Origin: Planomonospora sp. ID67723 | GTDB taxonomy: Bacteria > Actinomycetota > Actinomycetes > Streptosporangiales > Streptosporangiaceae | DNA: 64,000 bases | Direction: 5' to 3' | Assembly: GCF_015711605.1 (NCBI RefSeq) | Contig: NZ_JABTEZ010000001.1 | Coordinates: 1,826,001-1,890,000 of the forward strand | In this document: positions 13,044 through 26,603 of the stretch, in pieces | Layout of the letters: each line of letters opens with the position of its first letter | Position numbering within the stretch: the stretch's first letter is position 1 | The notes under the pieces: generated by a model | The model's database searches: none | What the model saw: the letters and a program-made list of their open reading frames with translations, nothing else | What the model was told of the DNA's origin: nothing | Translations under genes and position numbers: made by a program

Positions 13044-16000
13044 ATGCCCCTGATCAGTGTCATCGTGCCGATCTACAACGTCGAGCCCTACCTCCAGGCG
13101 TGCCTGGAGTCACTCGCGGCCCAGACCTGGCGTGACATCGAAGTCGTCATGGTCGACGACGGCTCGCCCGACGCCAGCGCCGAGATCGCCCAGAGGTACG
13201 CCGCGGACGACCCCCGTTTCCTGCTCGTCCGCCAGGCCAACCGCGGTCTCGGCGCGGCACGCAACGCGGGGCTGCGGCGGGCCTCCGGAGAGTTCGCCGC
13301 CTTCCTCGACAGCGACGACCTGCTGCCGTTGCACGCGCTGGAGACCATGGTGAGCAGCCTCCTGGAGACCGGCTCCGACCTCGTCGCCGGGAACGTTCAA
13401 CGCTTCGGCGGGCGGGGAGTACGGCAGGCGCCGATGTACCGGGAGATCGCGGCCCGCCCGCTCCGGCGCACCCACGTCACCGAGCACCCCGTCCTGCTGC
13501 GGGACCGGCTGGTCACCAACAAGCTCTGGCGCCGTTCGTTCTGGGACGAGCACGGCATGGGCTTCCCCGAGGGGGTGCTCTACGAGGACATCGCGGTCGC
13601 CCTCCGGGCGCATTTCCTCGCCAAAACGGTGGACGTGCTGACCACCCCCGTCTACCTGTGGCGCGAGCGGGAGGGCGAGCAGCTCTCCATCACTCAGGAC
13701 CGCGCGCAGGTCAAGGGCATCGAGGACCGGTTCACCGCCGTGCGGTCGGTACGCGGTTTCCTCCTCGGCGGCGACTACGCCGAGCACGTTCCCACCTGGG
13801 ACCGTACCGTCCTCGACCACGACCTCCCGCTCTTCTTCCCGGCGCTCCAGCACGGTGACGACGCCTTCCGGCGGCGGTTCACGGAGCTCGCCGCGGCCTA
13901 CCTCGACGAGGTCGACCCCGGCGTTCTCACCTCCATCCCCGCCACACGCCGCGTCCTGTGGCACCTGGTACGGCACGGCAGGATGGACGACGCGCTCGAA
14001 CAGCTCGCCTGGGAGCGGACCGCCGAGCCGCAGGCCGTACGCCGGGGCACCCGTTACCACCTCGACACGCCGGTGCGCGACCTGCCCGCGGAGGCGACGC
14101 GCCTGCGCGGCGATCTCACCCTGCGGCAGCGGGTGGACGAGCTGCGCTGGGAGGACGGCCGCCTGGTGGTCGAGGGACGGGCCACCCTCCGTCACCTCCG
14201 CCCGTCCCAGCGGATCCATCAGCAGATATTCGCCTCCCTGGTCCAGCCGGACACCGGGCGGCAGATCCGTATACCGGTCGCAGCCGTGCAGGCGGGTTCG
14301 ATCGGATATTCCCGTAACAGCCGTAAACGGCGTGACTGGGGAGGGTTCCGCCTCGTCATCGATCCGGCCCAGATCGGCGCCAAGAAGGCGTCGAGCTGGC
14401 ATGTCGAGCTGATGGTGATCCACCGGGGCATGGTGCGGCGCGAGCGGTTGCGCGCGGGTGACGTCGAGAGCGTCCATGAGGTACGGCCGGGCATACGTCT
14501 GATCACGGAGCGGACCGGAGGCGACTTCACCCTCCGGGTGGAGCCGGAACGGCTGCGGCTCACCGGCCGGACGGTGACCGGCGGCCGGCTCCGGCTGACC
14601 GGGCACGCGCCCGGCGGCCTGGCCGCGCCTGTCCTCCAGCTCACCCGTGAACCCGGCGGATCCGTCCTGTCCTATCCGGTCCACAGCCGGGGCGGTTCCT
14701 TCCACGCCGAGCTCGATCTCCGGGACGTGCTGCCCCCGCGGGTGCCCCGGCTCGATCCTGCCTGTCAGGAGGCCGCGGCCCTGGACATGAGGGTGGAGTG
14801 GCGGATCCGGATCGTCGACGGCGAGGCGATGCCGATCGCCGACGGTCTTCCGGAGGCCCGGCACACGCAAGGCGACCGCGAGGTCGTCATGACCGCATCA
14901 CCTGCCGGTGAGTTCGTGGTGCGGGTGCAGCCTCCGGCGGCCGTCCTGGAGCGCGCGGAATGGTCCGGCGATGCGCGGTTGCTGCTCGCCGGAGCGTTCG
15001 CCGGCGCCGACCGGGCGCCGGTCCGTCTCGTCGTGTCCTCCACCGACCGGCGCGACGAGCGGCTGTTCCCCGTCCACTGCGCGGGCACCCGTTTCGAGAC
15101 CGTCCTCACTCCCGGCGCGGTCTCCTCCCTCGCCGGGACGCTCCCGCTGCCTGCGGGGAGGTACAGGCTGGCGCTCCGGGCGCCCGGCCGGGACTTCCCC
15201 CTGGAGGGCCACGGGAACGTACGGCACGGCACCGCCGCGCGAACGTTCGCGCTCGATGCGGACGAGACGGGGAAAATCCTGCTCACGGTCGGCGACGACC
15301 TGACGGACGAGGAACGCGGCGCCACGAACCAGCAGGAGCTGCGGACGACGCGCTACCCCGCGTGGCGGGAGGAACCGCTGCGGCAGGCCGTGCTGTTCGA
15401 CAGCTACTCCGGCAGGCGGTTCTCCGACAACCCGAGGGCCGTCTACGAGGAACTGCGGCGCAGAGGCTCCGCCCTGGAGTTCCTGTGGGTGGTCAGGGAC
15501 GGGCAGGTGGAGCTGCCCCCCGACGTGACCCCGGTCCGGTTCCACGGCAGGGAGCACTACGAGGCACTCGCCCGCTGCCGCTACGTCGTCACCAACACCC
15601 ATTTGCCGTCCTGGTTCGAGCGCAGACAGGGACAGACGGTCCTGCAGACCTGGCACGGCTCCGTGGCGAAGCGAATCGGGTTCGACACGGAGGAGGTCTC
15701 ACTCGCCGCGCCGGAGCTCCGCAGGCGACTGGCCAGGAAGATCGAGCAGTGGGACTACCTGCTCTCGCCCGGCCCCTGGTGCACACCGATCCTGACGAGT
15801 GCCTTCCGGTTCCGGGGGACGGTGCTGGAGGCCGGTCACCCGCGCAACGACGTGCTGGTCCGGCCGGGCGGGGAGGAACTGGCCGAGCGGGTCAGGGAAC
15901 GGCTCGGCCTGCCGCCCGGGAGGAAAGCGGTGCTCTACGCCCCGACCCGACGCGGGGACGCGCTCGACGGCAGGAGCCGCGTCCGGTCCGGCCTCCGGCT

Positions 16001-16457
16001 GGACTTCGACCGGATGCGCGAGCGGCTCGGATCCGACCACGTGCTGCTGGTCCGTCGGCATCCCGACACCGCGGACGCGGTGTCCCGCGCCGACGGGGAG
16101 TTCGTCCTCGACGTGTCGGCCTATCCGGACGTCCGGGAGCTGTACCTGGCCGCCGACGTCCTCGTCACCGACTACTCCTCGGCCATGGCCGACTTCGCGG
16201 TGACCGGCCGCCCGATCCTCCTGTACGCCTACGACCTGGAGCACTACCGGGGCGAGGGCCGGGCCTTCTACCTCGACCTGGAGGCGGAGGCGCCGGGCCC
16301 CCTGCTCCGCACCACCGACGAGGTCATCGAGGCGCTCAGAGGGCTCGACGCGGTCGCCGCGGAGTACGCCGAGCGCTATGCCGCCTTCACCGCCAGGCAC
16401 TGCCCCCTCGACGACGGGGGTGCCGCGGCGAGGGTCGTCGACCGGGTCTTCATCTGA
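13044..16457 (+). CDS. GT2 glycosyltransferase fused to TagF-type CDP-glycerol glycerophosphotransferase
   Basis: This 1137-residue protein has two catalytic parts. Residues 1 to about 230 form a GT2 domain (LISVIVPIYNVEPYLQACLE, FAAFLDSDDLLP, then VLYEDIAVALRAHF). Residues about 778-1130 match the teichoic-acid polymerase domain (Glyphos_transf): VLFDSYSGRRFSDNPRAVYE, VLQTWHGSVAKRIG (about 866), HPRNDVL and LVTDYSSAMADFAVTGRP (about 1040). A long beta-rich linker lies between. TagF domains transfer glycerol phosphate from CDP-glycerol, so this enzyme could add both a sugar and a polyol phosphate. ATG 13044 is preceded by GAGGGGG and lies 3 bp after the previous stop. A second fusion of the same plan is at 23640-26432. 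Confidence 0.88.
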   Translation: MPLISVIVPIYNVEPYLQACLESLAAQTWRDIEVVMVDDGSPDASAEIAQRYAADDPRFLLVRQANRGLGAARNAGLRRASGEFAAFLDSDDLLPLHALETMVSSLLETGSDLVAGNVQRFGGRGVRQAPMYREIAARPLRRTHVTEHPVLLRDRLVTNKLWRRSFWDEHGMGFPEGVLYEDIAVALRAHFLAKTVDVLTTPVYLWREREGEQLSITQDRAQVKGIEDRFTAVRSVRGFLLGGDYAEHVPTWDRTVLDHDLPLFFPALQHGDDAFRRRFTELAAAYLDEVDPGVLTSIPATRRVLWHLVRHGRMDDALEQLAWERTAEPQAVRRGTRYHLDTPVRDLPAEATRLRGDLTLRQRVDELRWEDGRLVVEGRATLRHLRPSQRIHQQIFASLVQPDTGRQIRIPVAAVQAGSIGYSRNSRKRRDWGGFRLVIDPAQIGAKKASSWHVELMVIHRGMVRRERLRAGDVESVHEVRPGIRLITERTGGDFTLRVEPERLRLTGRTVTGGRLRLTGHAPGGLAAPVLQLTREPGGSVLSYPVHSRGGSFHAELDLRDVLPPRVPRLDPACQEAAALDMRVEWRIRIVDGEAMPIADGLPEARHTQGDREVVMTASPAGEFVVRVQPPAAVLERAEWSGDARLLLAGAFAGADRAPVRLVVSSTDRRDERLFPVHCAGTRFETVLTPGAVSSLAGTLPLPAGRYRLALRAPGRDFPLEGHGNVRHGTAARTFALDADETGKILLTVGDDLTDEERGATNQQELRTTRYPAWREEPLRQAVLFDSYSGRRFSDNPRAVYEELRRRGSALEFLWVVRDGQVELPPDVTPVRFHGREHYEALARCRYVVTNTHLPSWFERRQGQTVLQTWHGSVAKRIGFDTEEVSLAAPELRRRLARKIEQWDYLLSPGPWCTPILTSAFRFRGTVLEAGHPRNDVLVRPGGEELAERVRERLGLPPGRKAVLYAPTRRGDALDGRSRVRSGLRLDFDRMRERLGSDHVLLVRRHPDTADAVSRADGEFVLDVSAYPDVRELYLAADVLVTDYSSAMADFAVTGRPILLYAYDLEHYRGEGRAFYLDLEAEAPGPLLRTTDEVIEALRGLDAVAAEYAERYAAFTARHCPLDDGGAAARVVDRVFI

Positions 16458-16516: not shown

Positions 16517-17068
16517 ATGAACATATTCGTGCTCGGCACCGGTCGTTGCGGGACGACGACGTTCATCCGTGCCTGCGAGCATCTCGACAACTTCACCGCA
16601 GGGCACGAGACGCTGTCGCAGATGTGCGGTGAGGACCGGTTCGCGTACCCGGGACGGCACATCGAGGCCGACAACCGTCTCTCCTGGTTCCTCGGGCAAC
16701 TGGCCCTGCGCTACGACGGCCGGGACGTGCTCTACGTGCACCTGCGCCGTGACCCCGAAGCGGTCGTGTCGAGCTTCCTGAAGCGCTGGGACAGCACCTA
16801 CCGCGCATCGATCATGCGCTCCTACGCGCACGGGCTCCTCCAGAGGGCGAGCGACTGGCCCGAGCGGGAGCGCGCCCTCGTGTGCCGGTCCTACGTCGAC
16901 ACGGTGACGGCCAACATCGAGGAGTTCCTCCGTCACCGGGACTCGACGACGATGTGGCTGGAAGAGGCCGACTGGGCCTTCCCCGGGTTCCTGGACCGGA
17001 TCGGGGCGGTGGGAGACCTGGAGGCGGCGCGGGCCGAGTGGAGGGTCCAGCACAACGCTTCGGTGTAG
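16517..17068 (+). CDS. Short sulfotransferase-like protein
   Basis: This 183-residue protein starts with NIFVLGTGRCGTTTFIRA, a P-loop-like 5'-phosphosulfate-binding motif of sulfotransferases. YVHLRRDPEAVVSSFLKRW (about 76-94) resembles the 3'-phosphate-binding R-D-P/G-x-x-V-x-S motif. It is shorter than usual for the family (250-350 residues), but the reading frame is clean with a good ribosome site (GGAAGGA, 16502-16508). It would take sulfate from PAPS to a hydroxyl, or it may have lost full activity. It is the first of four sulfotransferase-like genes in 6 kb. Confidence 0.72.
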   Translation: MNIFVLGTGRCGTTTFIRACEHLDNFTAGHETLSQMCGEDRFAYPGRHIEADNRLSWFLGQLALRYDGRDVLYVHLRRDPEAVVSSFLKRWDSTYRASIMRSYAHGLLQRASDWPERERALVCRSYVDTVTANIEEFLRHRDSTTMWLEEADWAFPGFLDRIGAVGDLEAARAEWRVQHNASV

Positions 17069-17245: not shown

Positions 17246-17325
17246 GGTCAAGAAGTGGAAAGGAGACCTTCCGGTAGTTACAGAGAGTCAATGCGGGAGG
17301 GCCGGCCGTCGCCATGCTGGCAGCT
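17246..17325 (+). promoter_or_regulatory. Conserved 80-bp leader, copy 1
   Basis: This segment matches 19377-19456 upstream of the paralogous gene, at exactly the same 80-bp distance from the ATG. About 46 of the first 52 positions are identical, including GGAGACCTTCCG and TAGTTACAGA. Conservation in non-coding DNA at a fixed distance suggests a promoter or 5'-UTR element shared by the two cassettes. I cannot assign a sigma factor. Confidence 0.7.
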
Positions 17326-18213
17326 ATGAGGGCCTATTCGCTGGACGACGTCCGTGCCACCTGCAAAGCCAAAGACTCCTGGTGGACCGTTTTCCTGGTC
17401 GACCCGGTGGCGTGCCGGATCACGCTGCTGGTGGCCAACCACACGGCCATCACACCCAACGGGCTCTCCCGTTTCTCGCTCATTCTCGGTACGGCCTCGG
17501 CGGTCTGGTTCGCGGCGGGACAGCTCGCGGCGGGGGCCGCGCTGTTCTACCTGAGCTTCATGGTCGACTGCATGGACGGGAAGATCGCCCGGCTCAAGGG
17601 GACCGGGACCGTCTTCGGTCTCTGGATCGACTACGTGGGCGACCGGATCCGGGTGGTCTGCTGCTCGGTCGGGCTGGCGTTCGGCCAGTACGCGGCCACC
17701 GGTGAACTGGTCTACATCCTGCTCGGCACGGGGGTCGCCGTGCTGGACCTCTTCCGCTACGTGAACGCCCCGCAGATGAAGCGGGTGCGCGACGCGGTCA
17801 GGGAGAGCTGGCCGGCGCACGAGGCCGCGGCGGCTCCGGGGGAGGTCTCGGTGACCCGCGCGGAGGTCTCCGCGGTGCTCGCGGAGGCCACCTCGCTGAT
17901 CGAGGCCTCGGCGGCCTCCCGGACGCGGGGCCTGCGGGGGCTGCTCGGGGGATACCGTCTGATCGGCCCCTTCCTCGCCCGCTACCGGGTCCGCACCCAT
18001 CTGGTGAGCGGCATCGAGTTCCACGCCGCGGTCTTCGTGGTGGCGCCGCTGCTCGGCAGCCGGGCGCTGCTGCCCGTCTCGACCGCCGCCGGCGCCCTGC
18101 TCCTGCTGAACGAGGTCTACCTGATCTACCGGTTGTGGCGGTTCACCCGGATGCCCGCGCCCGCCGTGCCCGCCGCGCCGGCTCCGCACGACGCGCAGCG
18201 CGTACCCGCCTGA
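17326..18213 (+). CDS. CDP-alcohol phosphatidyltransferase family protein, cassette copy 1
   Basis: This 295-residue membrane enzyme contains the full family signature D-G-x2-A-R-x8-G-x3-D-x3-D (DGKIARLKGTGTVF, then GLWIDYVGD, about 85-107). Members displace CMP from a CDP-alcohol or CDP-diacylglycerol with a second alcohol. Several helices flank the motif, and two more lie near the C-terminus (FHAAVFVVAPLLG, AGALLLLNEVYLIYRLW). The middle (about 160-210) is a variable charged insert. I chose ATG 17326 over 17314 because the paralogue at 19457 starts with the same MRAYSLDDV. It is paired with a sulfotransferase gene downstream. The substrates are unknown. Confidence 0.85.
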   Translation: MRAYSLDDVRATCKAKDSWWTVFLVDPVACRITLLVANHTAITPNGLSRFSLILGTASAVWFAAGQLAAGAALFYLSFMVDCMDGKIARLKGTGTVFGLWIDYVGDRIRVVCCSVGLAFGQYAATGELVYILLGTGVAVLDLFRYVNAPQMKRVRDAVRESWPAHEAAAAPGEVSVTRAEVSAVLAEATSLIEASAASRTRGLRGLLGGYRLIGPFLARYRVRTHLVSGIEFHAAVFVVAPLLGSRALLPVSTAAGALLLLNEVYLIYRLWRFTRMPAPAVPAAPAPHDAQRVPA

Positions 18214-18248
18214 CCGGTACGGCGCGTCCCGCCTGACCGGCGCCCTGC

Positions 18249-18293
18249 GACCGGCACACCTTCTGATCGATTTCTCCACGGGGGTTCGTTGTG
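18249..18293 (+). repeat. Conserved intergenic spacer, cassette copy 1
   Basis: The segment between the phosphotransferase and sulfotransferase genes is nearly identical to 20339-20384, with one 1-nt indel. It contains GATCGATTTCTCCACG followed by GGGGG, which serves as the ribosome site about 10 bp before the ATG. Confidence 0.85.
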
Positions 18294-19340
18294 ATGCAGT
18301 CCGACCGGCCGATCTTCGTCATCGGCTGCCCGCGCTCCGGCACCACCATGCTGCAGCTGATGTTGCACGCCCACCCGCGCATCGCCATCCCGCCGGAGAC
18401 CCGGTTCATGGTCGCGGCCTACCAGCGGCGGCGGCGTTTCGGCGACCTGGCCGACCCGGCCCGCCGGCGCGAGTTCGCCGAGTGGCTGGTGGGGCGGCGG
18501 CAGAACCGGTTCCAGGACCTGGGGCTGGACGCCGCCGAGGTGACCGAGCAGATCGTCACCGGCCCGCCGACGCTCGGCTCGGCGCTGGGCATCGTGCTGC
18601 GCGCCTACGCGGCCCGGTTCGGCAAGCCGCGCTGGGGCGACAAGCGGCCGTCGTACTTCAAGAGCGTGGACGTGCTGCTCCGGCTCTTCCCGGACGCCCA
18701 GTTCGTCCACCTGATCAGGGACGGCCGCGACTGCGTGGCCTCGCTGAAGGAGATGCCCTGGTACAACAAGGAGATCTACCATGCGATCTCCGTCTGGGCC
18801 GAGGCGATCGACTTCGCCCGCCGCCGCGCCGCCAAGCTCCCTGCGGGCAGCTACCACGAGATGCGCTACGAGAACCTCACGGCCCACCCCGAGGCCGAGC
18901 TCGCCCGGCTGTGCGCGTTCCTCGGCGAGGAGTACGACCCGGCGATGTGCGAGCCGAGCCGGGTGGCGGGCGTCGCCGTACCGGAGCACAAGACCTGGCA
19001 CAGCAACACCCACGGCGAGGTGACCACCGCCCGGTCCGGCTCGTGGAAGTCGCGGCTGGAGCCGTGGGAGGCCTCGTTGTGCGAGACCGTCCTCGCCGAC
19101 CGGCTCCAGGCCTACGGCTACGAGCTCGGCGGAACCCCCAAGGCCGAGCGCTCGCACATCCTCGCCTACGAGCACACCGCGGCCAAGCGGAAGCTGTCCA
19201 GAACCAAGCGGGCCACCCTCGACCGGCTGATACGGCTCCGCGAGCCCAACCCGCTGGCGGCCAGGCTCACCGCCGAGGAGCTGAAGCTGGCCGGGATCCC
19301 GGTCCGCCGCGACGAGTCCGTCCTCGCCGGAACACGCTGA
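18294..19340 (+). CDS. Sulfotransferase family protein, cassette copy 1
   Basis: This 348-residue protein has the PAPS 5'-phosphosulfate loop IGCPRSGTTMLQLM (about 9-22) and the 3'-phosphate motif HLIRDGRDCVASLKEM (about 139-154). It also has WGDKRPSYF and a C-terminal SGSWKSRLEPWE segment, all as expected for Sulfotransfer_1/3 enzymes. It would sulfate a hydroxyl of a sugar or lipid. ATG 18294 is preferred to GTG 18291 because both paralogues start MQSDRPIF. It is about as close to the third copy (21398) as to the second (20385), so the copies have shuffled or converged. Confidence 0.88.
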   Translation: MQSDRPIFVIGCPRSGTTMLQLMLHAHPRIAIPPETRFMVAAYQRRRRFGDLADPARRREFAEWLVGRRQNRFQDLGLDAAEVTEQIVTGPPTLGSALGIVLRAYAARFGKPRWGDKRPSYFKSVDVLLRLFPDAQFVHLIRDGRDCVASLKEMPWYNKEIYHAISVWAEAIDFARRRAAKLPAGSYHEMRYENLTAHPEAELARLCAFLGEEYDPAMCEPSRVAGVAVPEHKTWHSNTHGEVTTARSGSWKSRLEPWEASLCETVLADRLQAYGYELGGTPKAERSHILAYEHTAAKRKLSRTKRATLDRLIRLREPNPLAARLTAEELKLAGIPVRRDESVLAGTR

Positions 19341-19376
19341 ACCCACCGGAACGGTCGTGGCGCACCGGCCCGGGAT

Positions 19377-19456
19377 GGTCAAGAACTGGCATGGAGACCT
19401 TCCGTTAGTTACAGACAGTCAATGCCGGTGGGTGTGGTGTCGCCATCCTGGCCTGT
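19377..19456 (+). promoter_or_regulatory. Conserved 80-bp leader, copy 2
   Basis: This is the second copy of the leader described at 17246-17325, at the same distance from the start codon of the second phosphotransferase gene. The region begins 36 bp after the stop of the preceding sulfotransferase gene. Confidence 0.7.
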
Positions 19457-20326
19457 ATGAGGGCCTACTCGTTGGACGACGTTCACGCGACGCGCAAGCA
19501 GAGAGATTCGTGGTGGACGGTCTTCCTGGTCGATCCGGTGGCGTGCCGGCTCACCGTGCACGTCGCCAACCACACGGCCGTCACGCCCAACGGCCTCACC
19601 TGCCTCTCGTTGGCGCTCGGCCTGGGGGCGGCGGTCTGGTTCGCGGCGGGACAGCTCGTGGCGGGGGCCGCGCTGTTCTACCTGAGCTTCATGGTCGACT
19701 GCATGGACGGGAAGATCGCCCGGCTCAAGGGGACCGGGACCGTCTTCGGTCTCTGGATCGACTTCGTGGGCGACCGGATCCGGGAGATCTGCTGCGCGAC
19801 CGGCCTGGCGTTCGGCCAGTACGCGGCCACCGGGGACCTCTCCTACATCCTGCTCGGCGCCGGGGTGACGGTGCTGGACCTCTTCCGCTACGTGAACGCC
19901 CCGCAGATGAGGCGGGTGCGCGAGGCGGTCAGGGAGAACCGGCTCCCGCGTGACGCCGCGGAGACGGGGGCCATCACGCCGGCCGGGGCGTCGCTGGAGG
20001 ACTCCATCGAGTCGCAGGTCGGGGAGGACCCCACCGTCCAGCCCCCCTGGGGCGCCCGGCAGGTGCTGCGGAGATACCGGAGGCTCGGCCGGGCACTCGG
20101 CCGCCATCGGGTCCGCCCGCACCTGATGAGCGGCATCGAGTTCCACGCCGCGGTCTTCGTGGTGGCGCCGCTGCTCGGCAGCCGGGCGCTGCTGCCCGTC
20201 TCGACCGCCGCCGGCGCCCTGCTCCTGCTGAACGAGATCTTCCTGATCTACCTGCTGTGGTTGTACACCCGGACGGCGGCGCCCGCCGCGCCGATCCCGT
20301 CCGCCGCCCCGCGCCTGCCTGCCTGA
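19457..20326 (+). CDS. CDP-alcohol phosphatidyltransferase family protein, cassette copy 2
   Basis: This 289-residue paralogue of the 17326 product shares long identical runs, including the catalytic DGKIARLKGTGTVF and the C-terminal SGIEFHAAVFVVAPLLGS. The central insert (about 155-205) has diverged, so conserved catalysis with changed partner or substrate recognition is plausible. The catalytic signature is intact (GLWIDFVGD). The start is ATG 19457, directly behind the conserved leader. It forms the second phosphotransferase-sulfotransferase pair of a tandem duplication. Confidence 0.85.
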   Translation: MRAYSLDDVHATRKQRDSWWTVFLVDPVACRLTVHVANHTAVTPNGLTCLSLALGLGAAVWFAAGQLVAGAALFYLSFMVDCMDGKIARLKGTGTVFGLWIDFVGDRIREICCATGLAFGQYAATGDLSYILLGAGVTVLDLFRYVNAPQMRRVREAVRENRLPRDAAETGAITPAGASLEDSIESQVGEDPTVQPPWGARQVLRRYRRLGRALGRHRVRPHLMSGIEFHAAVFVVAPLLGSRALLPVSTAAGALLLLNEIFLIYLLWLYTRTAAPAAPIPSAAPRLPA

Positions 20327-20338
20327 CCGGCCCGCCGC

Positions 20339-20384
20339 GACCGGCACACCTGTCTGATCGATTTCTCCACGGGGGTTCGTTGTA
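20339..20384 (+). repeat. Conserved intergenic spacer, cassette copy 2
   Basis: Counterpart of 18249-18293, identical except for a 1-nt insertion and the base before the ATG. It supplies the GGGGG ribosome site of the second sulfotransferase gene. Confidence 0.85.
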
Positions 20385-21395
20385 ATGCAGTCCGACCGGC
20401 CGATCTTCGTCATCGGCTGCCCGCGCTCCGGCACCACCATGCTGCAGCTGATGCTCCACTCGCACCCGCGCATCGCGGTGCCGCCGGAGACCCGCTTCCT
20501 GGTGCCCGGCTACTACCGCAGGTTCGGCTTCGGCGACCTGCGGGAGGAGGCCAACCGGCGTCGGCTGGGTCAGTGGATCGTGAGCGACAAGGACACCAAG
20601 TTCAAGGAGCTCAAGCTGGACGGGGACCGGTTCGTCGAGGATGTCGTCGCCGGGCCGCCCACCCTCGGCTCGGCGATCGGCATCGCCTTCCGGTCCTATG
20701 CCGAGCAGTACGGCAAGGCCCGCTGGGGTGACAAGCGGCCGAGCTACTACCACTACGTGGACCTCATCCTGCGGCTGTTCCCCGACGCCCAGTTCATCCA
20801 CCTGATCAGGGACGGCCGGGACTGCGTGGCCTCGCTGAAGGAGATGCCCTGGTACGGCAAGGACGTCTTCCACGCGGTGAACAACTGGGCCGAGGCCATC
20901 GACTTCGGCCGCCGCCACGCCAAGCGGCTGCCGGCCGACAGCTACTACGAGCTGCGCTACGAGGACCTCACCGCCTCCCCGGAGACCGAGCTCGCCAAGC
21001 TGTGCGCGTTCCTCGGCGAGGAGTACGACCCCGCGATGAGCGAGCCGAGCCACGTGGCGAAGATGGCGATCCCGCAGCACAAGGTCTGGCACAGCAACAC
21101 CCACGGCGAGGTGACCACCGCCCGGTCCGGCTCGTGGAAGTCGCGGCTGGAGCCGTGGGAGATCTCGCTGTGCGAGACCGTGCTCGCCGAGCGGCTGGAA
21201 TCCTTCGGCTACGAGCTGACCGGTGCGCCCGAGGCGAAGAAGGCCCACGCCGCGGAGGTGGCCAGGGTCGCGGCCAAACGGCGGGCGGCCCGCCGGCGCA
21301 AGGACCTGAGGGACCGGATCAACCGGTTGCGTGAGCCCGGCCCGGTGGCCGCGCAACTGACCACCGGGCAGCTGGGCGAGCTGGTGAAGGCCTGA
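20385..21395 (+). CDS. Sulfotransferase family protein, cassette copy 2
   Basis: This 336-residue protein has the same PAPS motifs as its neighbours (CPRSGTTMLQLM and HLIRDGRDCVASLKEM). Residues about 40-95 differ strongly (YYRRFGFGDLREEANRRRLG against YQRRRRFGDLADPARRREFA), which is where acceptor specificity would be expected. The C-terminal 40 residues are also distinct and rich in Arg, Lys and Ala. It ends 2 bp before the third sulfotransferase gene, so the two are co-translated or tightly coupled. Confidence 0.88.
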   Translation: MQSDRPIFVIGCPRSGTTMLQLMLHSHPRIAVPPETRFLVPGYYRRFGFGDLREEANRRRLGQWIVSDKDTKFKELKLDGDRFVEDVVAGPPTLGSAIGIAFRSYAEQYGKARWGDKRPSYYHYVDLILRLFPDAQFIHLIRDGRDCVASLKEMPWYGKDVFHAVNNWAEAIDFGRRHAKRLPADSYYELRYEDLTASPETELAKLCAFLGEEYDPAMSEPSHVAKMAIPQHKVWHSNTHGEVTTARSGSWKSRLEPWEISLCETVLAERLESFGYELTGAPEAKKAHAAEVARVAAKRRAARRRKDLRDRINRLREPGPVAAQLTTGQLGELVKA

Positions 21396-21397
21396 CG

Positions 21398-22456
21398 ATG
21401 CAGTCCGACCGCCCGATCTTCATCGTGGGCTGCCCCCGCTCCGGGACGACGCTGCTCCAGCTCATGACGCACGCCCACCCGCGCATCGCCATCCCGCCGG
21501 AGACCCGGTTCATGGTCGCGGCCTACCAGCGGCGGCTGCGCTTCGGCGACCTGGCCGACCCGATCTGCCGGCGCGAGCTCGCCGAGTGGGTCGTCGGCCG
21601 CAGGCAGCACCGGTTCCAGGACCTGGGGCTGGACGCCGCCGAGGTGGCCAGGGAGATCGCCACCGGCCCGCCCACGCTCGGCTCGGCGCTGGGCATCGTG
21701 CTGCGCGCCTACGCGGCCCGGTTCGGCAAGCCGCGCTGGGGCGACAAGCGGCCGGGGTACTTCCAGAGCGCGGACGTGCTGCTCCGGCTCTTCCCGGACG
21801 CCCAGTTCGTCCACCTGATCAGGGACGGCCGCGACTGCGTGGCCTCGCTGAAGGAGATGCCCTGGCACACCGGGAACGTCTACAGCGCGATCTCCGTCTG
21901 GGCCGAGGCGATCGACTTCGCCCGGTACGGCGCGCCCCGGCTTCCCGAGGACAGCTACCACGAGCTGCGGTACGAGGACCTGACCCGCGATCCGGAGACG
22001 TCGCTGCGCGGGCTGTGCGACTTCCTCGGGGAGGAGTACGACCCGGCGATGTGCGAGCCGGACCGGGTGGCGGGCGTCGCCGTGCCCGCCCGCAAGACCT
22101 GGCACAAGCGCACCCACGACAAGGTGACGACCACCCGGTCCGGCTCGTGGAAGTCGCGGCTGTCCCCGCAGGAGATCTCGCTGTGCGAGACCGTGCTCGC
22201 CGAGCGGCTGGAGTCCTTCGGCTACGAGCTCAGCGGGGCCCCGAAGGCCGAGCGCTCGCAGATCATCGCCTACGAGCACACCGCGGCCAAGCGGAAGCTG
22301 GCGCGGGCCAAGCGGGTCGCCTTCGACCGGCTGGTACGGCTCCGCGAGCCGAACCCCCTGGCGGCCAGGCTCACCAGCGGGGAGTTAGAGCTGGCGGGCA
22401 TCCCCGTGCCCCGCCGCGAGCAGCCGGTCCCCGTCAGCGGGTCCGTCAGCGGGTGA
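21398..22456 (+). CDS. Sulfotransferase family protein, third copy
   Basis: This 352-residue enzyme has intact PAPS motifs (VGCPRSGTTLLQLM and HLIRDGRDCVASLKEMPW) and is very close to the 18294 product over its whole length. It lacks a phosphotransferase partner of its own and starts 2 bp after the previous stop. Its last 11 bp overlap the end of the convergent GT4 gene. It probably arose from the cassette duplication with loss of one phosphotransferase gene. Confidence 0.88.
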   Translation: MQSDRPIFIVGCPRSGTTLLQLMTHAHPRIAIPPETRFMVAAYQRRLRFGDLADPICRRELAEWVVGRRQHRFQDLGLDAAEVAREIATGPPTLGSALGIVLRAYAARFGKPRWGDKRPGYFQSADVLLRLFPDAQFVHLIRDGRDCVASLKEMPWHTGNVYSAISVWAEAIDFARYGAPRLPEDSYHELRYEDLTRDPETSLRGLCDFLGEEYDPAMCEPDRVAGVAVPARKTWHKRTHDKVTTTRSGSWKSRLSPQEISLCETVLAERLESFGYELSGAPKAERSQIIAYEHTAAKRKLARAKRVAFDRLVRLREPNPLAARLTSGELELAGIPVPRREQPVPVSGSVSG

Positions 22457-23534
22457 CGTTCTCGAAGAGCGCCTCCCAGCGGTCCAGGACCCGCTCCAGC
22501 CTGAACTCCCGGGCATGCGCGCGGGCGGCGGCTCCCAGCCGCCGCCGCTCGCGCACCGAGCCCATCAGCCCGGCCAGCGCCGCCGCGAACGCGTCCACGT
22601 CGGCCGGGGGAGCCAGCAGCCCGGTCTCCCCGTCGAGGACCAGGGAGCGCACCCCGCCCGACACGTCGAACGCCACCGACGGCACGCCGTACGAGGCGGC
22701 CTCCCCGACCACCAGCGGCAGCCCTTCGTGCTCGCTGGACAGGCCCAGCACCGACCCGGAGAGGTACTCGCGTCCCATCTCCGCCGCGGGGACCGCCCCC
22801 CGGAACACCACCCGGTCCGCCACCCCGCAGGCCAGCGCGTGCGCACGCAGCCGCTCCCGCTCGTCGCCCTCGCCGATCAGGTGCAGCTCCCAGCTCTCCG
22901 CCGCGTCCCGGCAGGCCAGGGCGAAGGCCGAGATCAGCCGGTCGAACCGCTTGACCCCCTCCAGCCTGCCGACTCCGAGCACCCGGTGACCGGTCAGTCC
23001 GGCCGCCCGTGAAGGCCAGTCCGGCAGCGGGTTCGGCAGGGACCAGACGTTGGGCAGCAGCGCGTGCTCCGAGAACAGCCACGCGTCGTCCTCGCTGACG
23101 AACACCGCCTTCTCCAGCCCGCCGTAATGCCCGCGGACCGACCCGAGGTGCCAGGAGCCCCGCGCGTGCTGGTAGGAGCCGTGGTACTGGCCGATCGGGA
23201 GCAGGTGCCCGGGCAGCAGGCTCTTCAGCCGCGTGACCACGCCAGGTGAGGTCATCACCGCGAAGCCCGGAGCCAGCCGGTCGAACAGCTCCCCGAGCCG
23301 CCGTCGCTCACGCCGCATGGCCGGCCCGGAGACCTTCCCCATGAGCGTCCGGTGGATCACGTGGCGGTGGTAGGCGGGCCGCTCCACGTAACGGAACGGG
23401 CGTTCCGCCCGGTGCAGCCCCACCACGTGCACGTCGTGCCCCCGACCGGCGAGACCCTGGGCCACGGTGTGCGTGACCCGCTGGATCCCGCCCAGGGTGT
23501 CGGCGTCCATACAGGCGAACAGGACTGTGCTCAT
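22446..23534 (-). CDS. GT4 family glycosyltransferase
   Basis: This 362-residue retaining GT-B enzyme has DTLGGIQRVTHTVAQGL near the N-terminus and RVLGVGRLEGVKRFDRLI in the middle. The C-terminal sugar-nucleotide site reads LGLSSEHEGLPLVVGEAASY, followed by a DGETGLLAPP loop. ATG 23534 is chosen; GAGGAGG lies about 12 bp upstream, and the alternative GTG 23555 would overlap that site. It probably contributes a sugar to the same glycan as the facing cluster. It converges with the third sulfotransferase gene. Confidence 0.88.
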   Translation of the reverse strand: MSTVLFACMDADTLGGIQRVTHTVAQGLAGRGHDVHVVGLHRAERPFRYVERPAYHRHVIHRTLMGKVSGPAMRRERRRLGELFDRLAPGFAVMTSPGVVTRLKSLLPGHLLPIGQYHGSYQHARGSWHLGSVRGHYGGLEKAVFVSEDDAWLFSEHALLPNVWSLPNPLPDWPSRAAGLTGHRVLGVGRLEGVKRFDRLISAFALACRDAAESWELHLIGEGDERERLRAHALACGVADRVVFRGAVPAAEMGREYLSGSVLGLSSEHEGLPLVVGEAASYGVPSVAFDVSGGVRSLVLDGETGLLAPPADVDAFAAALAGLMGSVRERRRLGAAARAHAREFRLERVLDRWEALFENVTR

Positions 23535-23639: not shown

Positions 23640-26432
23640 TCACCGCAGCCATCCCGGTACGGCCAACCGGACCGCGTGCCGCGCGGCGGGCGGGCGGTGC
23701 CGCTCCGGGGTCCGGCCTCCCACCGGGCCGAAGAAGGCGTCCACCACCCGGGCGCTGGCATGCCCCTTCTCGTCGGCGCACCACATCGCGCGGAACGCGG
23801 CGTACTTGGCGGTGAACGAGGCGGCCAGGCCGTCGAGGTCGCGCAGCGCGTAGACGAGCTCCTCGGTGGTGGTCAGGCAGGGGCCCGGAGCGATCGTGGG
23901 CAGGTCGTGGTAGACGCCCCGCTCCACCCTGCGGTACTCGTCCCAGTCGTCGATGAGGAAGAGCATCGGCTTGCCGGTGACCGCGTAGTCGCACATCACC
24001 GAGGAGTAGTCGGTCAGCAGCGCGTCCGAGGCGAGCATCAGATCGTTGATCTCCGGATACGACCCGGCCGGACGGACGAAGTGGCGCAGGTGCTGGGGCA
24101 CCCGGTAGCGCTCGACCGGGTGCGGGCGCAGGACGACCACCCACTCCCCGGCGAGGGCCTCCGCCATCATCTCCAGGTCGGCCCGGATCGACTGGCCGGA
24201 GCACTTCGCCTGGTCCCGGTAGGTCGGGGCGTAGAGCAGCACCTTGCGGCCCGGCGGGATCTCCAGGCGGTCCTTCACCCGCGCGACGGCGGCGAGATCA
24301 CCGTGAACGAGCACATCGCAGCGGGGCGAACCATAGCGGAGCACCGGGCCGGTGTACTCGTTGGACGGGACGAAGATCCGCTCGAACTCGGCGCTCGGCG
24401 CGACCAGCGCGTCCCAGCGCGCCACGGCCGCCCGCCACTGCGCGCGCGGTCCGGGGAAGTCGGAGCGCAGGTCCGGCGAGTTGAAGCCGATCGACTTGAT
24501 GCCCTGGCCGTGCCAGGTCTGCAGGTAGCGCGTCCGCGGAGGCTTGGGGTAGTCCAGCGGCAGGCCGTGGCTGTCCACCCAGTAGCCCGCCCGGGCCATC
24601 GTCCAGATGTACCGCCAGCTCATCCGGCGCACGAGCGGGGCGTCGGCGGGGAAGTTCCGGCGCCTCTTCGCGACCGACCAGACCATGCGGAGCGGGGCGC
24701 CGCGCCGCTTCAGCTCCTCGTAGACGTAGCGGGGACTGCCGGTGTAGCCGGCGCCGACGTCGGATTCGAACAGGGCGAGGTCCCTGCGGGGCGGCACGAC
24801 CTTGATCAGTCCTTTGTAGACCCGGAGCTTCAGTCCGGGGGTGCTCAGCCTCCTGACGAGCCCGGCCCTGGCCCGCACCAGCCTGGGCACCCGGCGCAAC
24901 AGGCCCTCCCGCCGCCAGCACAGCCGCAGGACCGCGGCCGATCCCTCGGCCCGCACCGTGACCGTGTGCCAGGGGACGGGCGCGACGACCGGTTCGGCGG
25001 CCGGATCCACCAGCAGCAGGTCGGAGGTGACCCGGCCGTCGGGGCGGACGATCGCGATCCTCGGGTCATAGCGGCCGTCGAAGCCGAGACGGCCGTGCCT
25101 GAGCCCGGCGAGGTCGACCGTGGCCTCGCTGAGCAGACTGCCGTCGGGCTGCTCGCGGGGCGCCAGCCGTACCCGGTGGGACCTGAACTCCAGGAACGCG
25201 GTCCAGCCCGGGTTGGCGGCGAGGACGCCGAACGGGTCGTAGGTCCTGATCGACAGGGTGAGCCTCGTCCCGTCGCAGGTGAAGGAGGCCTCGTGCCTGA
25301 GCCGGGCCGCGGTGTAGGGCAGCTCGGCCAGCCGGAGCGAAGTGATCTCCATCCTCCGGTCCGGGACGGTGCCCCAGTAAGTGCGCCCGCCCTCCCGTAC
25401 GGCGGAGCGCGGCACGGCCCTCGGCCCGTTGAGGGACCGGGCGGCCACGATCAGCTCGTCGACCCGTCCGTCGAGGATCAGCGTGCAACAGACCCGCAGG
25501 ACGGGGTCGATCCGGTCGAAGACGGCGGGATCGACCCCGGCCAGGTACGGCCGGACGACGGAGACGAACTCCGCCGCCCAGGCCCGGTCCCGCGAGGGCA
25601 GCGGATTGAGGTAGACCCGCAGGTCCTGGCGGAGGAACCGGTGCTGGCGCTCGGGGACCAGGTGACCGCAGCCGCGCTCCCGGAGGATCTCGTCGCTGAT
25701 GTGCGCCGCCCTGATCCGCTGCCGGGCGTTGTGCATCTCGCGGAAGCGGAGCGAGATCGACAGGCGGCCGTCTCCCGTGTCCCGGGCACGGTGCCAGAGG
25801 TAGACGGTCCACGGGACCACCGCGAACCGGCGGGCGGCGCAGTACAGCTTCGCGGTGAAGACGTGATCCTCGAAGTGCATGTCCTCGCGGAACGGGATCC
25901 GCCGCAGCAGCTCGGTCCGGTAGAGCTTGTTGGTGGCGAAGGAGTCGAGGAACATCCGAGGGTCCTCGGCGATCCCCTCGACTGTCCTGCGCCGGGCGAA
26001 CAGCTCCGGGTAGTAGCGGTTGCTCTTCCGGCTCGCCTCGTAGAACCGGGTGATCTGCCCGGTGACGAAGTCTGCGCCGGTCCGCTCGATCTCCAGGAGC
26101 ATGCTCTTGCAGGCGTGCATGCTGAGCCGGTCGTCGCTGTCGAGGAACATGGCGTACGGCGCGCGGGCGGTGGCCACCCCGGCGTTGCGCGGCGCTCCGC
26201 ATCCGCCGCTGTTGCCCTCCATGCGCAGGTAGCGGACCCGCTGGTCGCCTTCCTGGAGCTCACGGACGACCTGCTCGGTGTCGTCGGTGCTCGCGTCGTC
26301 CACGACGATCACTTCGAGGTTCCGCAACGACTGGTCGAGCACCGATCGCACGGCTCTCGGAAGCCGCGCGGCGTCGTTGTAGGTAATGACGATCACACTG
26401 CATTCGGGTGCATTGATCACCCTATGCACCAT
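23640..26432 (-). CDS. GT2 glycosyltransferase fused to TagF-type glycerophosphotransferase, second copy
   Basis: This ~930-residue protein has an N-terminal GT2 domain (CSVIVITYNDAARLPRAVRS, AMFLDSDDRLS, FREDMHFEDHVFTAKLY). The C-terminal Glyphos_transf domain (about 535-890) contains YLQTWHGQGIKSIGFNS, GSPRCDVL and LLTDYSSVMCDYAVTGKP. The layout equals that of the 13044-16457 product but the sequences are clearly diverged. The start is uncertain: ATG 26432 begins right before the GT2 fold, while ATG 26480 adds 16 residues; neither has a good ribosome site. It likely uses CDP-glycerol or another CDP-polyol. It lies 105 bp upstream of the GT4 gene on the same strand. Confidence 0.85.
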   Translation of the reverse strand: MVHRVINAPECSVIVITYNDAARLPRAVRSVLDQSLRNLEVIVVDDASTDDTEQVVRELQEGDQRVRYLRMEGNSGGCGAPRNAGVATARAPYAMFLDSDDRLSMHACKSMLLEIERTGADFVTGQITRFYEASRKSNRYYPELFARRRTVEGIAEDPRMFLDSFATNKLYRTELLRRIPFREDMHFEDHVFTAKLYCAARRFAVVPWTVYLWHRARDTGDGRLSISLRFREMHNARQRIRAAHISDEILRERGCGHLVPERQHRFLRQDLRVYLNPLPSRDRAWAAEFVSVVRPYLAGVDPAVFDRIDPVLRVCCTLILDGRVDELIVAARSLNGPRAVPRSAVREGGRTYWGTVPDRRMEITSLRLAELPYTAARLRHEASFTCDGTRLTLSIRTYDPFGVLAANPGWTAFLEFRSHRVRLAPREQPDGSLLSEATVDLAGLRHGRLGFDGRYDPRIAIVRPDGRVTSDLLLVDPAAEPVVAPVPWHTVTVRAEGSAAVLRLCWRREGLLRRVPRLVRARAGLVRRLSTPGLKLRVYKGLIKVVPPRRDLALFESDVGAGYTGSPRYVYEELKRRGAPLRMVWSVAKRRRNFPADAPLVRRMSWRYIWTMARAGYWVDSHGLPLDYPKPPRTRYLQTWHGQGIKSIGFNSPDLRSDFPGPRAQWRAAVARWDALVAPSAEFERIFVPSNEYTGPVLRYGSPRCDVLVHGDLAAVARVKDRLEIPPGRKVLLYAPTYRDQAKCSGQSIRADLEMMAEALAGEWVVVLRPHPVERYRVPQHLRHFVRPAGSYPEINDLMLASDALLTDYSSVMCDYAVTGKPMLFLIDDWDEYRRVERGVYHDLPTIAPGPCLTTTEELVYALRDLDGLAASFTAKYAAFRAMWCADEKGHASARVVDAFFGPVGGRTPERHRPPAARHAVRLAVPGWLR

Positions 26433-26603
26433 TCCCGTGATTAGATGGAGGATTGTCTTTTTTATTGAGTGATGGCCCATTTTTTATGTTTGTGGTTGAT
26501 CGGTCGTCCTCCGGCCACACCCTCCCATCTCGTCCCATCGCTCTCTGTAGCATTCATCTCACGGACCGGGCTCCGGGCGGGGAGTTCCGGGAGGGGAGGG
26601 TGG

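What the first reader, a model, noticed from the sequence alone, without database searches (positions are those of the whole stretch)
17246..22456. Tandem duplication of a CDP-alcohol phosphotransferase plus sulfotransferase cassette, with an extra third sulfotransferase
The order phosphotransferase-sulfotransferase occurs twice, then a third sulfotransferase follows 2 bp later. Catalytic motifs are intact in all five proteins, while the central insert of the phosphotransferases and residues 40-95 of the second sulfotransferase have diverged. A lipid- or polyol-phosphate-forming enzyme coupled to PAPS-dependent sulfation, in a locus with TagF domains, suggests a sulfated phospho-polyol glycan or glycolipid that I do not know as a described actinobacterial pathway.
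Basis: partly seen in the sequence, partly recalled or inferred. Interest (0 to 1): 0.78.

Follow-up and report, generated by a model that had tools for sequence, protein, structure and literature searches.

The report
Sulfation gene pair in wall-polymer locus
A membrane enzyme that moves phospho-alcohols and an enzyme that adds sulfate are kept side by side, mostly near cell-wall polymer genes, in many genera of one family of soil bacteria, which suggests that these bacteria make a sulfated, phosphate-containing surface glycan or lipid that still has to be isolated.

Summary
The five genes are real and intact: two CDP-alcohol phosphotransferases (CAP, PF01066) and three sulfotransferases (ST, PF13469), order CAP1-ST1-CAP2-ST2-ST3. 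The association is not random. In 150 genomes of the family, 63 have a CAP within 4 kb of an ST, and the 59 best CAP matches are all of this kind. All 80 named loci fetched, the best 80 of 107, have the pair, median gap 21 bp. 29 of 40 more distant CAP loci lack the ST, and 16 ST loci from elsewhere lack this CAP. A TagF-type gene lies in 71 of 72 loci longer than 20 kb. A DNA element lies 79-81 bp before the CAP start in 93 of 97 ST-linked CAPs and 1 of 32 unlinked ones. The history is not a simple cassette duplication: ST1 is kin to ST3, not ST2, and the CAP duplication is shared with Planobispora. The CAPs are probably not phosphatidylinositol-phosphate synthases: the genome has another that passes the curated cut-off. 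Most likely the module makes a sulfated phospho-alcohol lipid or glycan of a wall phosphopolymer. The product is inferred, not shown.

The parts
17246..17325 (+). Conserved upstream DNA element 1 (GGTCAAGAA block to just before the CAP1 start codon)
   Evidence: 2 mismatches in the 17 specified bases of the 19-base pattern
17326..18213 (+). CAP1, CDP-alcohol phosphotransferase (an ATG at 17314 in the same frame is also possible)
18294..19340 (+). ST1, PAPS-type sulfotransferase of the ST3 lineage
19377..19456 (+). Conserved upstream DNA element 2, before CAP2; holds a 5-codon frame ATG..TAG that element 1 lacks
   Evidence: exact match to the pattern
19457..20326 (+). CAP2, CDP-alcohol phosphotransferase
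20385..21395 (+). ST2, sulfotransferase; the lineage that follows the CAP in most relatives
21398..22456 (+). ST3, sulfotransferase; starts 2 bp after ST2
22446..23534 (-). GT4 glycosyltransferase, convergent, overlaps the end of ST3 by 11 bp; found in 63 of 80 related loci
23640..26480 (-). GT2-TagF fusion (glycerophosphotransferase domain)
13044..16457 (+). GT2-TagF fusion upstream of the module
16517..17068 (+). Small sulfotransferase-like ORF (weak, 20 bits on PF13469, below the cut-off 27); no match in the 80 relatives at the thresholds

Best explanation
The genes form an expanded copy of a conserved two-gene module, CAP-ST, attached to a surface phospho-glycopolymer locus in Streptosporangiaceae. 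The CAP is a membrane enzyme with its active site expected on the cytoplasmic side; it joins a phospho-alcohol, from a CDP-activated donor, to an acceptor that is probably not inositol phosphate. The ST, a soluble enzyme, then uses PAPS to sulfate a hydroxyl of that product, or of the polymer it becomes part of, before export. The outcome would be a sulfated, phosphodiester-containing lipid or glycan at the cell surface. The module is switched on from its own upstream element. In this organism extra copies (CAP1/CAP2, ST1/ST3 beside ST2) may widen the set of alcohols or hydroxyls used. Shown here: gene identity, constraint, pairing across genomes, neighbourhood, presence of the upstream element. 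Inferred: that the element is a promoter or control site, the donor, the acceptor, the order of steps, the product, and that the CAP product is the ST substrate.
For: Pairing: 63 of 150 family genomes have CAP and ST starts within 4 kb, against about 0.1% per pair by random placement (from rows). 80 of 80 named loci have an ST within 2.5 kb after the CAP. CAP-to-ST gap median 21 bp, 77 of 95 at most 60 bp. Specificity: ST-linkage needs 3 changes on the CAP tree against 27 in shuffles; 16 loci of ST relatives from elsewhere show no CAP of this subfamily. Neighbourhood: TagF domain in 71 of 72 ST-CAP loci longer than 20 kb, and in 9 of 11 ST against 4 of 29 non-ST loci of about 11 kb; NeuB or PseB in 38 of 80. 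Enzymes: AF2 models with mean pLDDT 89 and 91 match CDP-alcohol phosphotransferases (best E 1.3e-5) and sulfotransferases (best E 2.9e-11). PAPS supply: one APS kinase in the genome. Element: 93 of 97 linked CAPs against 1 of 32 unlinked.
Against: No product or activity is known. Gene order in this family is conserved in general: a molybdopterin-dehydrogenase gene downstream is also found in 46 of 80 loci and its unnamed neighbour in 54, so nearness to TagF could partly be shared order. Some loci with the module lack GT4 or TagF2 (63 and 65 of 80 have them; some contigs end early). 31 of the 94 ST-bearing genomes have no listed CAP near their ST, so the ST family can work without a CAP; CAP paralogs also stand alone (29 of 40 loci). 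One stand-alone ST locus, L200, has a gene of another CAP subfamily about 2.6 kb away (by eye), so chance neighbours do occur. The rows are relatives, not independent events.
Confidence: 0.5

Rival explanations
1. CAP and ST work on different molecules of the same envelope: the CAP makes a membrane phospholipid (for example an anchor or primer), while the STs decorate sugars of the TagF or nonulosonate polymer. The pairing reflects common regulation only.
For: CAP paralogs occur without an ST and mostly away from TagF (25 of 29 non-ST loci of about 11 kb lack it), as expected of a lipid enzyme. ST paralogs occur without this CAP. One upstream element precedes the pair.
Against: The two genes are kept within tens of bases through gene gains and losses, and ST-linked CAPs form nearly one group on the tree, which suggests co-adaptation.
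Confidence: 0.28
2. The CAPs are extra phosphatidylinositol-phosphate synthases and the STs sulfate phosphatidylinositol mannosides or a related lipid.
For: Best curated family hits are archaetidylinositol-phosphate synthase (53.1 and 59.2 bits) and PIP synthase (35.8 and 44.8 bits). The equivalent of Mt R94, reported as key for inositol phosphate, is nearly invariant here (R107).
Against: All scores are far below the cut-offs 180 and 170. The genome has a PIP synthase of 276.7 bits (cut-off 170), beside genes that look by eye like an acyltransferase and a GT4. Its SYVKAR and RPER motifs, which hold acceptor residues in PIP synthases, appear as RYVNAP and SGIEF in CAP1/2; on that reading arginine 155 is replaced by F or Y. 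The second motif is matched by eye only.
Confidence: 0.07
3. The STs are tyrosine-type protein sulfotransferases that sulfate a secreted peptide; the CAP is an unrelated neighbour.
For: Tyrosylprotein sulfotransferases are the closest solved folds (E 2.9e-11, TM about 0.56). E35 and R37 are invariant in a segment that resembles the catalytic segment recalled for those enzymes.
Against: Polyketide and olefin synthase sulfotransferases match nearly as well by fold and better by sequence. No candidate peptide gene was noticed, though none was specifically searched for. The tight CAP pairing is unexplained.
Confidence: 0.05

Closest known systems
Actinoplanes missouriensis wps-1 cluster (predicted sulfated exopolysaccharide of the sporangium matrix; PMC13390465, abstract and passages read)
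   Same: Actinomycete surface-polysaccharide locus with two sulfotransferases; sporangium-forming host; the sulfated product is likewise only predicted.
   Different: wps-1 is described as a Wzx/Wzy pathway; 'CDP-alcohol' does not occur in the paper's main text. Its two sulfotransferases are assigned to InterPro families with other names. No TagF is mentioned in the passages read.
Phosphatidylinositol-phosphate synthase / AF2299 / IPCT-DIPPS (CDP-alcohol phosphotransferases)
   Same: Fold and complete D-x2-DG-x2-AR-x8-G-x3-D-x3-D signature.
   Different: Acceptor motifs of PIP synthases not found, a central insert of variable length, and similarity far below curated cut-offs.
PF13469 sulfotransferases: NoeE, CurM and olefin-synthase ST domains, tyrosylprotein sulfotransferase
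   Same: PAPS-binding P-loop and 3'-phosphate residues, fold.
   Different: All are distant (about 20% identity to solved structures; NoeE at most 54 bits against a cut-off of 500); substrate cannot be read across.
Wall teichoic acid and teichulosonic acid loci
   Same: TagF-type glycerophosphotransferases; pseudaminic-type sugar genes (PseB over its cut-off, NeuB) near the module in 38 of 80 relatives, nearly all Nonomuraea.
   Different: TagF here is fused to a GT2 domain; I know of no sulfotransferase or CDP-alcohol phosphotransferase as a standard part (recalled).
Mycobacterial sulfolipids and sulfated glycopeptidolipids (recalled, not searched here)
   Same: Sulfated envelope lipids made by PAPS-dependent sulfotransferases in actinobacteria.
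   Different: As recalled, their pathways do not pair the sulfotransferase with a CDP-alcohol phosphotransferase or TagF.

Membership tests
CDP-alcohol phosphotransferase superfamily (PF01066) | Eight-residue signature D-x2-D-G-x2-A-R-x8-G-x3-D-x3-D | tested here: met
   D81, D84, G85, A88, R89, G98, D102, D106 invariant in 49 sequences
CDP-alcohol phosphotransferase superfamily (PF01066) | Family score and fold | tested here: met
   48.6 and 49 bits over cut-off 22; Foldseek best E 1.3e-5, TM (query) 0.50-0.55 for AF2299
Phosphatidylinositol-phosphate synthase | NCBIfam NF045883 cut-off 170 | tested here: not met
   35.8 and 44.8 bits; another protein of the genome scores 276.7
Phosphatidylinositol-phosphate synthase | Acceptor residues (Mt R155, R195, S132, K135) | tested here: inconclusive
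   Profile alignment puts S132 and K135 at R144 and N147; R155 to F/Y229 is an eye alignment, since hhalign aligned only the first half; R195 not placed
PAPS-dependent sulfotransferase (PF13469) | Family score, 5' P-loop and 3'-phosphate residues | tested here: met
   145-154 bits; G11, C12, R14-T18, R142, S150 invariant in 32
PAPS-dependent sulfotransferase (PF13469) | Transfer of sulfate from PAPS | not testable with these tools
   Needs enzyme assay
Teichoic or teichulosonic acid locus | TagF-type polymerase near the module | tested here: met
   71 of 72 loci longer than 20 kb; two in the window
Teichoic or teichulosonic acid locus | Chemically shown phosphodiester or nonulosonate polymer bearing the sulfate | not testable with these tools
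   No chemistry found in the searches made
Tandem duplication of one CAP-ST cassette | CAP1/CAP2 and ST1/ST2 are sister pairs | tested here: not met
   ST1 groups with the ST3 lineage (100), ST2 with another (97)

The most novel reading that the evidence does not exclude
A dedicated pathway, spread over at least eleven genera of Streptosporangiaceae, in which a CDP-alcohol phosphotransferase of new acceptor specificity makes a phosphodiester-linked lipid or glycan unit that its partner sulfotransferase sulfates, giving a sulfated teichoic-like wall polymer or sulfated phospholipid of a kind that I did not find described.
Probability: 0.35. Interest if true: 0.75.

Novelty: new variant of a known kind. 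Interest (0 to 1): 0.52.

Why it matters
Sulfated surface polysaccharides are rare in bacteria, and in an actinomycete one is so far only predicted (PMC13390465, abstract and passages read). This module is short, found in eleven genera by record title, and set apart from its unlinked paralogs by sequence and by an upstream DNA element. That makes the question of whether these organisms carry a sulfated, phosphate-containing envelope molecule directly testable with one gene deletion and 35S labelling, and it offers a marker for finding such molecules in genomes. It also adds a CDP-alcohol phosphotransferase branch whose acceptor is unknown.

Tried and rejected
Simple cassette duplication: rejected by the ST tree; the CAP tree puts CAP1 and CAP2 in separate groups that both include Planobispora rosea and P. 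longispora copies, so that duplication is older than the split of those species from Planomonospora. Leader peptide: not settled. A recount shows a frame of 4-5 codons (ATG to stop) in the element of 53 of 97 linked CAPs, element 2 of the window among them; 33 have no ATG there, element 1 among them; a stop within 7 codons is found in 60 rows in that frame against 7 and 6 in the other two. It is not general, but a tiny upstream frame is not excluded. Leader RNA: no Rfam match, no consensus fold, folding no better than shuffles (z 0.11 and -0.48). A wider regulon: at up to 2 mismatches the own genome has 4 hits, two of them the CAP copies, against 1 for the reversed pattern, so no other clear site. 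A WhiG-type promoter was considered by eye and dropped for wrong spacing; a leaderless promoter remains a guess. Phosphatidylinositol-phosphate synthase: judged unlikely as above. Paper searches listed no paper whose title or abstract start names this pair; only listings were seen except for the papers cited. For sulfotransferase with Streptosporangiaceae (48), with Planobispora (90), and with CDP-alcohol phosphatidyltransferase plus teichoic (21) there were 0 papers. In PMC8269224 (Planobispora rosea) passages on teichoic acid were read; no word beginning with sulf occurs in its main text.

Limits: quick trees with SH-aLRT only; long branches meet in the CAP tree, the four CAPs of L127, L128, L136 and L137 (ST-linked but far from the rest) may be misplaced, and L111 sits on a very long branch. 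I left 2 of 131 CAP rows out for identity under 35% and thinned Nonomuraea for both trees (98 of 129 CAPs; 97 rows in the ST tree). The 80 loci are the best 80 of 107, so their 80 of 80 is not an unbiased count; the 150-genome count is the fairer one, and its CAP list was cut by the tool (I used 150 listed rows). Some unnamed loci repeat named ones (the CAP of L118 is identical to that of L049). Of 94 linked CAPs with at most 5 mismatches to the element, one (L136) has it at 128 bp, probably chance; L125, unlinked, has GGTCAAGG at 79 bp with 7 mismatches. The six membrane helices of the CAP model are my own count from the helix list; no membrane predictor was run. The gene caller used for neighbourhoods was a crude G+C-by-position script.
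Full report
What is there. The window is G000:C1:1826001-1890000 of an 8.34-Mb genome, close to Planomonospora venezuelensis (87-93% protein identity in these genes). Five genes lie head to tail: CAP1 17326-18213, ST1 18294-19340, CAP2 19457-20326, ST2 20385-21395, ST3 21398-22456. Pfam gives PF01066 for the CAPs and PF13469 for the STs. Upstream is a GT2-TagF fusion (13044-16457); downstream, on the other strand, a GT4 glycosyltransferase and a second GT2-TagF fusion. The genome has three PF04464 matches in all, two of them flanking the module, and ten PF13469 matches, three of them these STs. All five genes show dN/dS of 0.23-0.38 against the P. venezuelensis copies.

Is the pairing real? 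In 150 genomes of the family, 94 have an ST homolog at E<=1e-60, and 63 of these have a listed CAP within 4 kb. The 59 best CAP rows are all ST-linked; in all, 67 of the 150 rows that I used are. Random placement would give about 0.1% per pair. Of 80 named loci found with CAP1 (the best 80 of 107), all 80 have the ST after the CAP. By record title they span eleven genera: Nonomuraea 40, Streptosporangium 9, Microbispora 9, Planobispora 4, Planotetraspora 4, Planomonospora 3, Microtetraspora 3, Acrocarpospora 3, Sphaerisporangium 2, Sphaerimonospora 2, Sinosporangium 1. CAP and ST are a median 21 bp apart (n=95, range -8 to 215).

Does the pairing break elsewhere? Yes. Of 40 further CAP loci from the family, chosen among weaker matches, 11 have an ST and 29 do not. 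ST relatives from 16 loci, 11 in other families and 5 in this one, have no CAP of this subfamily in the fetched DNA, some of it short; one of them, L200, has a gene of another CAP subfamily about 2.6 kb away (by eye). On a tree of 98 CAPs, ST-linkage needs 3 changes against 27 in shuffles. So linkage marks mainly one lineage of each family. In the class-wide sample the CAP subfamily is at E<=1e-25 in 36 of 296 genomes and the ST at E<=1e-60 in 25 of 296.

Surroundings. A TagF domain lies in 71 of 72 ST-CAP loci longer than 20 kb; in fetched stretches of about 11 kb it is in 9 of 11 ST loci and 4 of 29 non-ST loci. NeuB or PseB genes, for pseudaminic-type sugars, are in 38 of 80, nearly all Nonomuraea. 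Stealth-type genes are in 22 of 80, 9 of them Microbispora. Against over-reading this: a molybdopterin-dehydrogenase gene further downstream and its unnamed neighbour are also common (46 and 54 of 80), so part of the shared order is general. The sensor kinase next to the window's second TagF is in only 1 of 80.

The upstream element. About 80 bp before the CAP start lies GGTCAAGAAnnGGCATGGA, followed by two further conserved blocks up to the start codon. With at most 5 mismatches and at 79-81 bp it is before 93 of 97 ST-linked CAPs; of 32 unlinked CAPs only L147 has it. Exceptions include second CAPs inside a tandem (L071, L075). The two copies in the window are the only matches there (expected 0.01). 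It does not fold as RNA. A frame of 4-5 codons sits in 53 of 97 copies, so a tiny leader frame is possible but not general. The last block, about 7 bp before ATG, could be the -10 box of a leaderless promoter; that is a guess.

History. ST1 is 80% identical to ST3 and 67% to ST2; in the tree ST1 and ST3 share a group (100) apart from ST2 (97). The nine named Streptosporangium loci have CAP-ST2-ST3; Planobispora rosea and P. longispora have CAP1-CAP2-ST2-ST3; P. venezuelensis and the window have CAP1-ST1-CAP2-ST2-ST3; P. parontospora and strain ID82291 have one CAP and three STs. Either a larger unit was duplicated and partly lost, or the CAP was duplicated and an ST copy came later; these cannot be told apart here.

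Enzymes. The CAP2 model (pLDDT 89) matches AF2299 and PIP synthases, and I count six long helices that could span the membrane. Clarke et al. (PMC4634129, passages read) propose that the six-helix members use soluble acceptors and that two arginines bind inositol phosphate; Grave et al. (PMC6506517, passages read) add R94, S132, K135 and R137. CAP1/2 keep the R94 equivalent, but the motifs SYVKAR and RPER of the genome's own PIP synthase appear as RYVNAP and SGIEF, the second by eye. So the donor chemistry is shared and the acceptor is probably different. The ST2 model (pLDDT 91) is closest to tyrosylprotein sulfotransferases and polyketide ST domains, which does not fix a substrate. One APS kinase is present for PAPS.

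Mechanism and verdict. Both reactions would take place on the cytoplasmic side, where PAPS and CDP-alcohols are and where TagF polymers are built (general knowledge). I therefore favour a module that makes and sulfates a phosphodiester-containing unit of a surface polymer or lipid (0.5), over two separate modifications of the envelope under one switch (0.28). The closest described case found, wps-1 of Actinoplanes missouriensis, also predicts an actinomycete sulfated polysaccharide but by a different route (PMC13390465, abstract and passages read). The kinds of parts are known; the combination was not found in the searches made, hence 'new variant of a known kind'.

Noticed in passing
window 16517-17068: Small ORF with a sulfotransferase-like P-loop start (GTGRCGTTT), 20 bits on PF13469 (below cut-off); no match in the 80 related loci at the thresholds.
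   Followed up: partly
L111:9905-14830 (G000:C1 about 2.025 Mb): Another CAP locus in the same genome: a 540-residue protein with a C-terminal CAP (40% identical to CAP2 over 121 residues), then a nucleotidyltransferase, a glycerol-1-phosphate-dehydrogenase-like protein (237.7 bits, cut-off 413) and a second CAP; looks like a separate CDP-alcohol pathway.
   Followed up: partly
L110, L119-L123: ST-linked CAPs with a greatly enlarged central part (386-534 residues in all, against 289-295 in the window).
   Followed up: no
L035:12391-13398 and L073:12415-13422: ST2 copies with RWADRRSGHHH where RWGDKRPSYYH is nearly invariant, beside two other STs; may be decaying or changing function.
   Followed up: partly
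L047, L057, L074 and other Nonomuraea loci: Pseudaminic-type nonulosonate genes (PseB over its cut-off, PseC at 400 against 423.5, NeuB, a cytidylyltransferase) a few kb upstream of the module.
   Followed up: partly
L071 and L075 (Nonomuraea soli, N. sediminis): Other expansions of the module (CAP-ST-CAP-ST and ST-CAP-ST), with the inner CAP lacking the upstream element.
   Followed up: partly
elements at 17246 and 19377 and their relatives: A frame of 4-5 codons (such as METFR, MDIPQ) within the element in 53 of 97 linked CAPs; could be a tiny upstream reading frame.
   Followed up: partly
L200:6400-7053 (G067): A gene of another CDP-alcohol phosphotransferase subfamily (by eye) about 2.6 kb from a stand-alone ST relative.
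   Followed up: no
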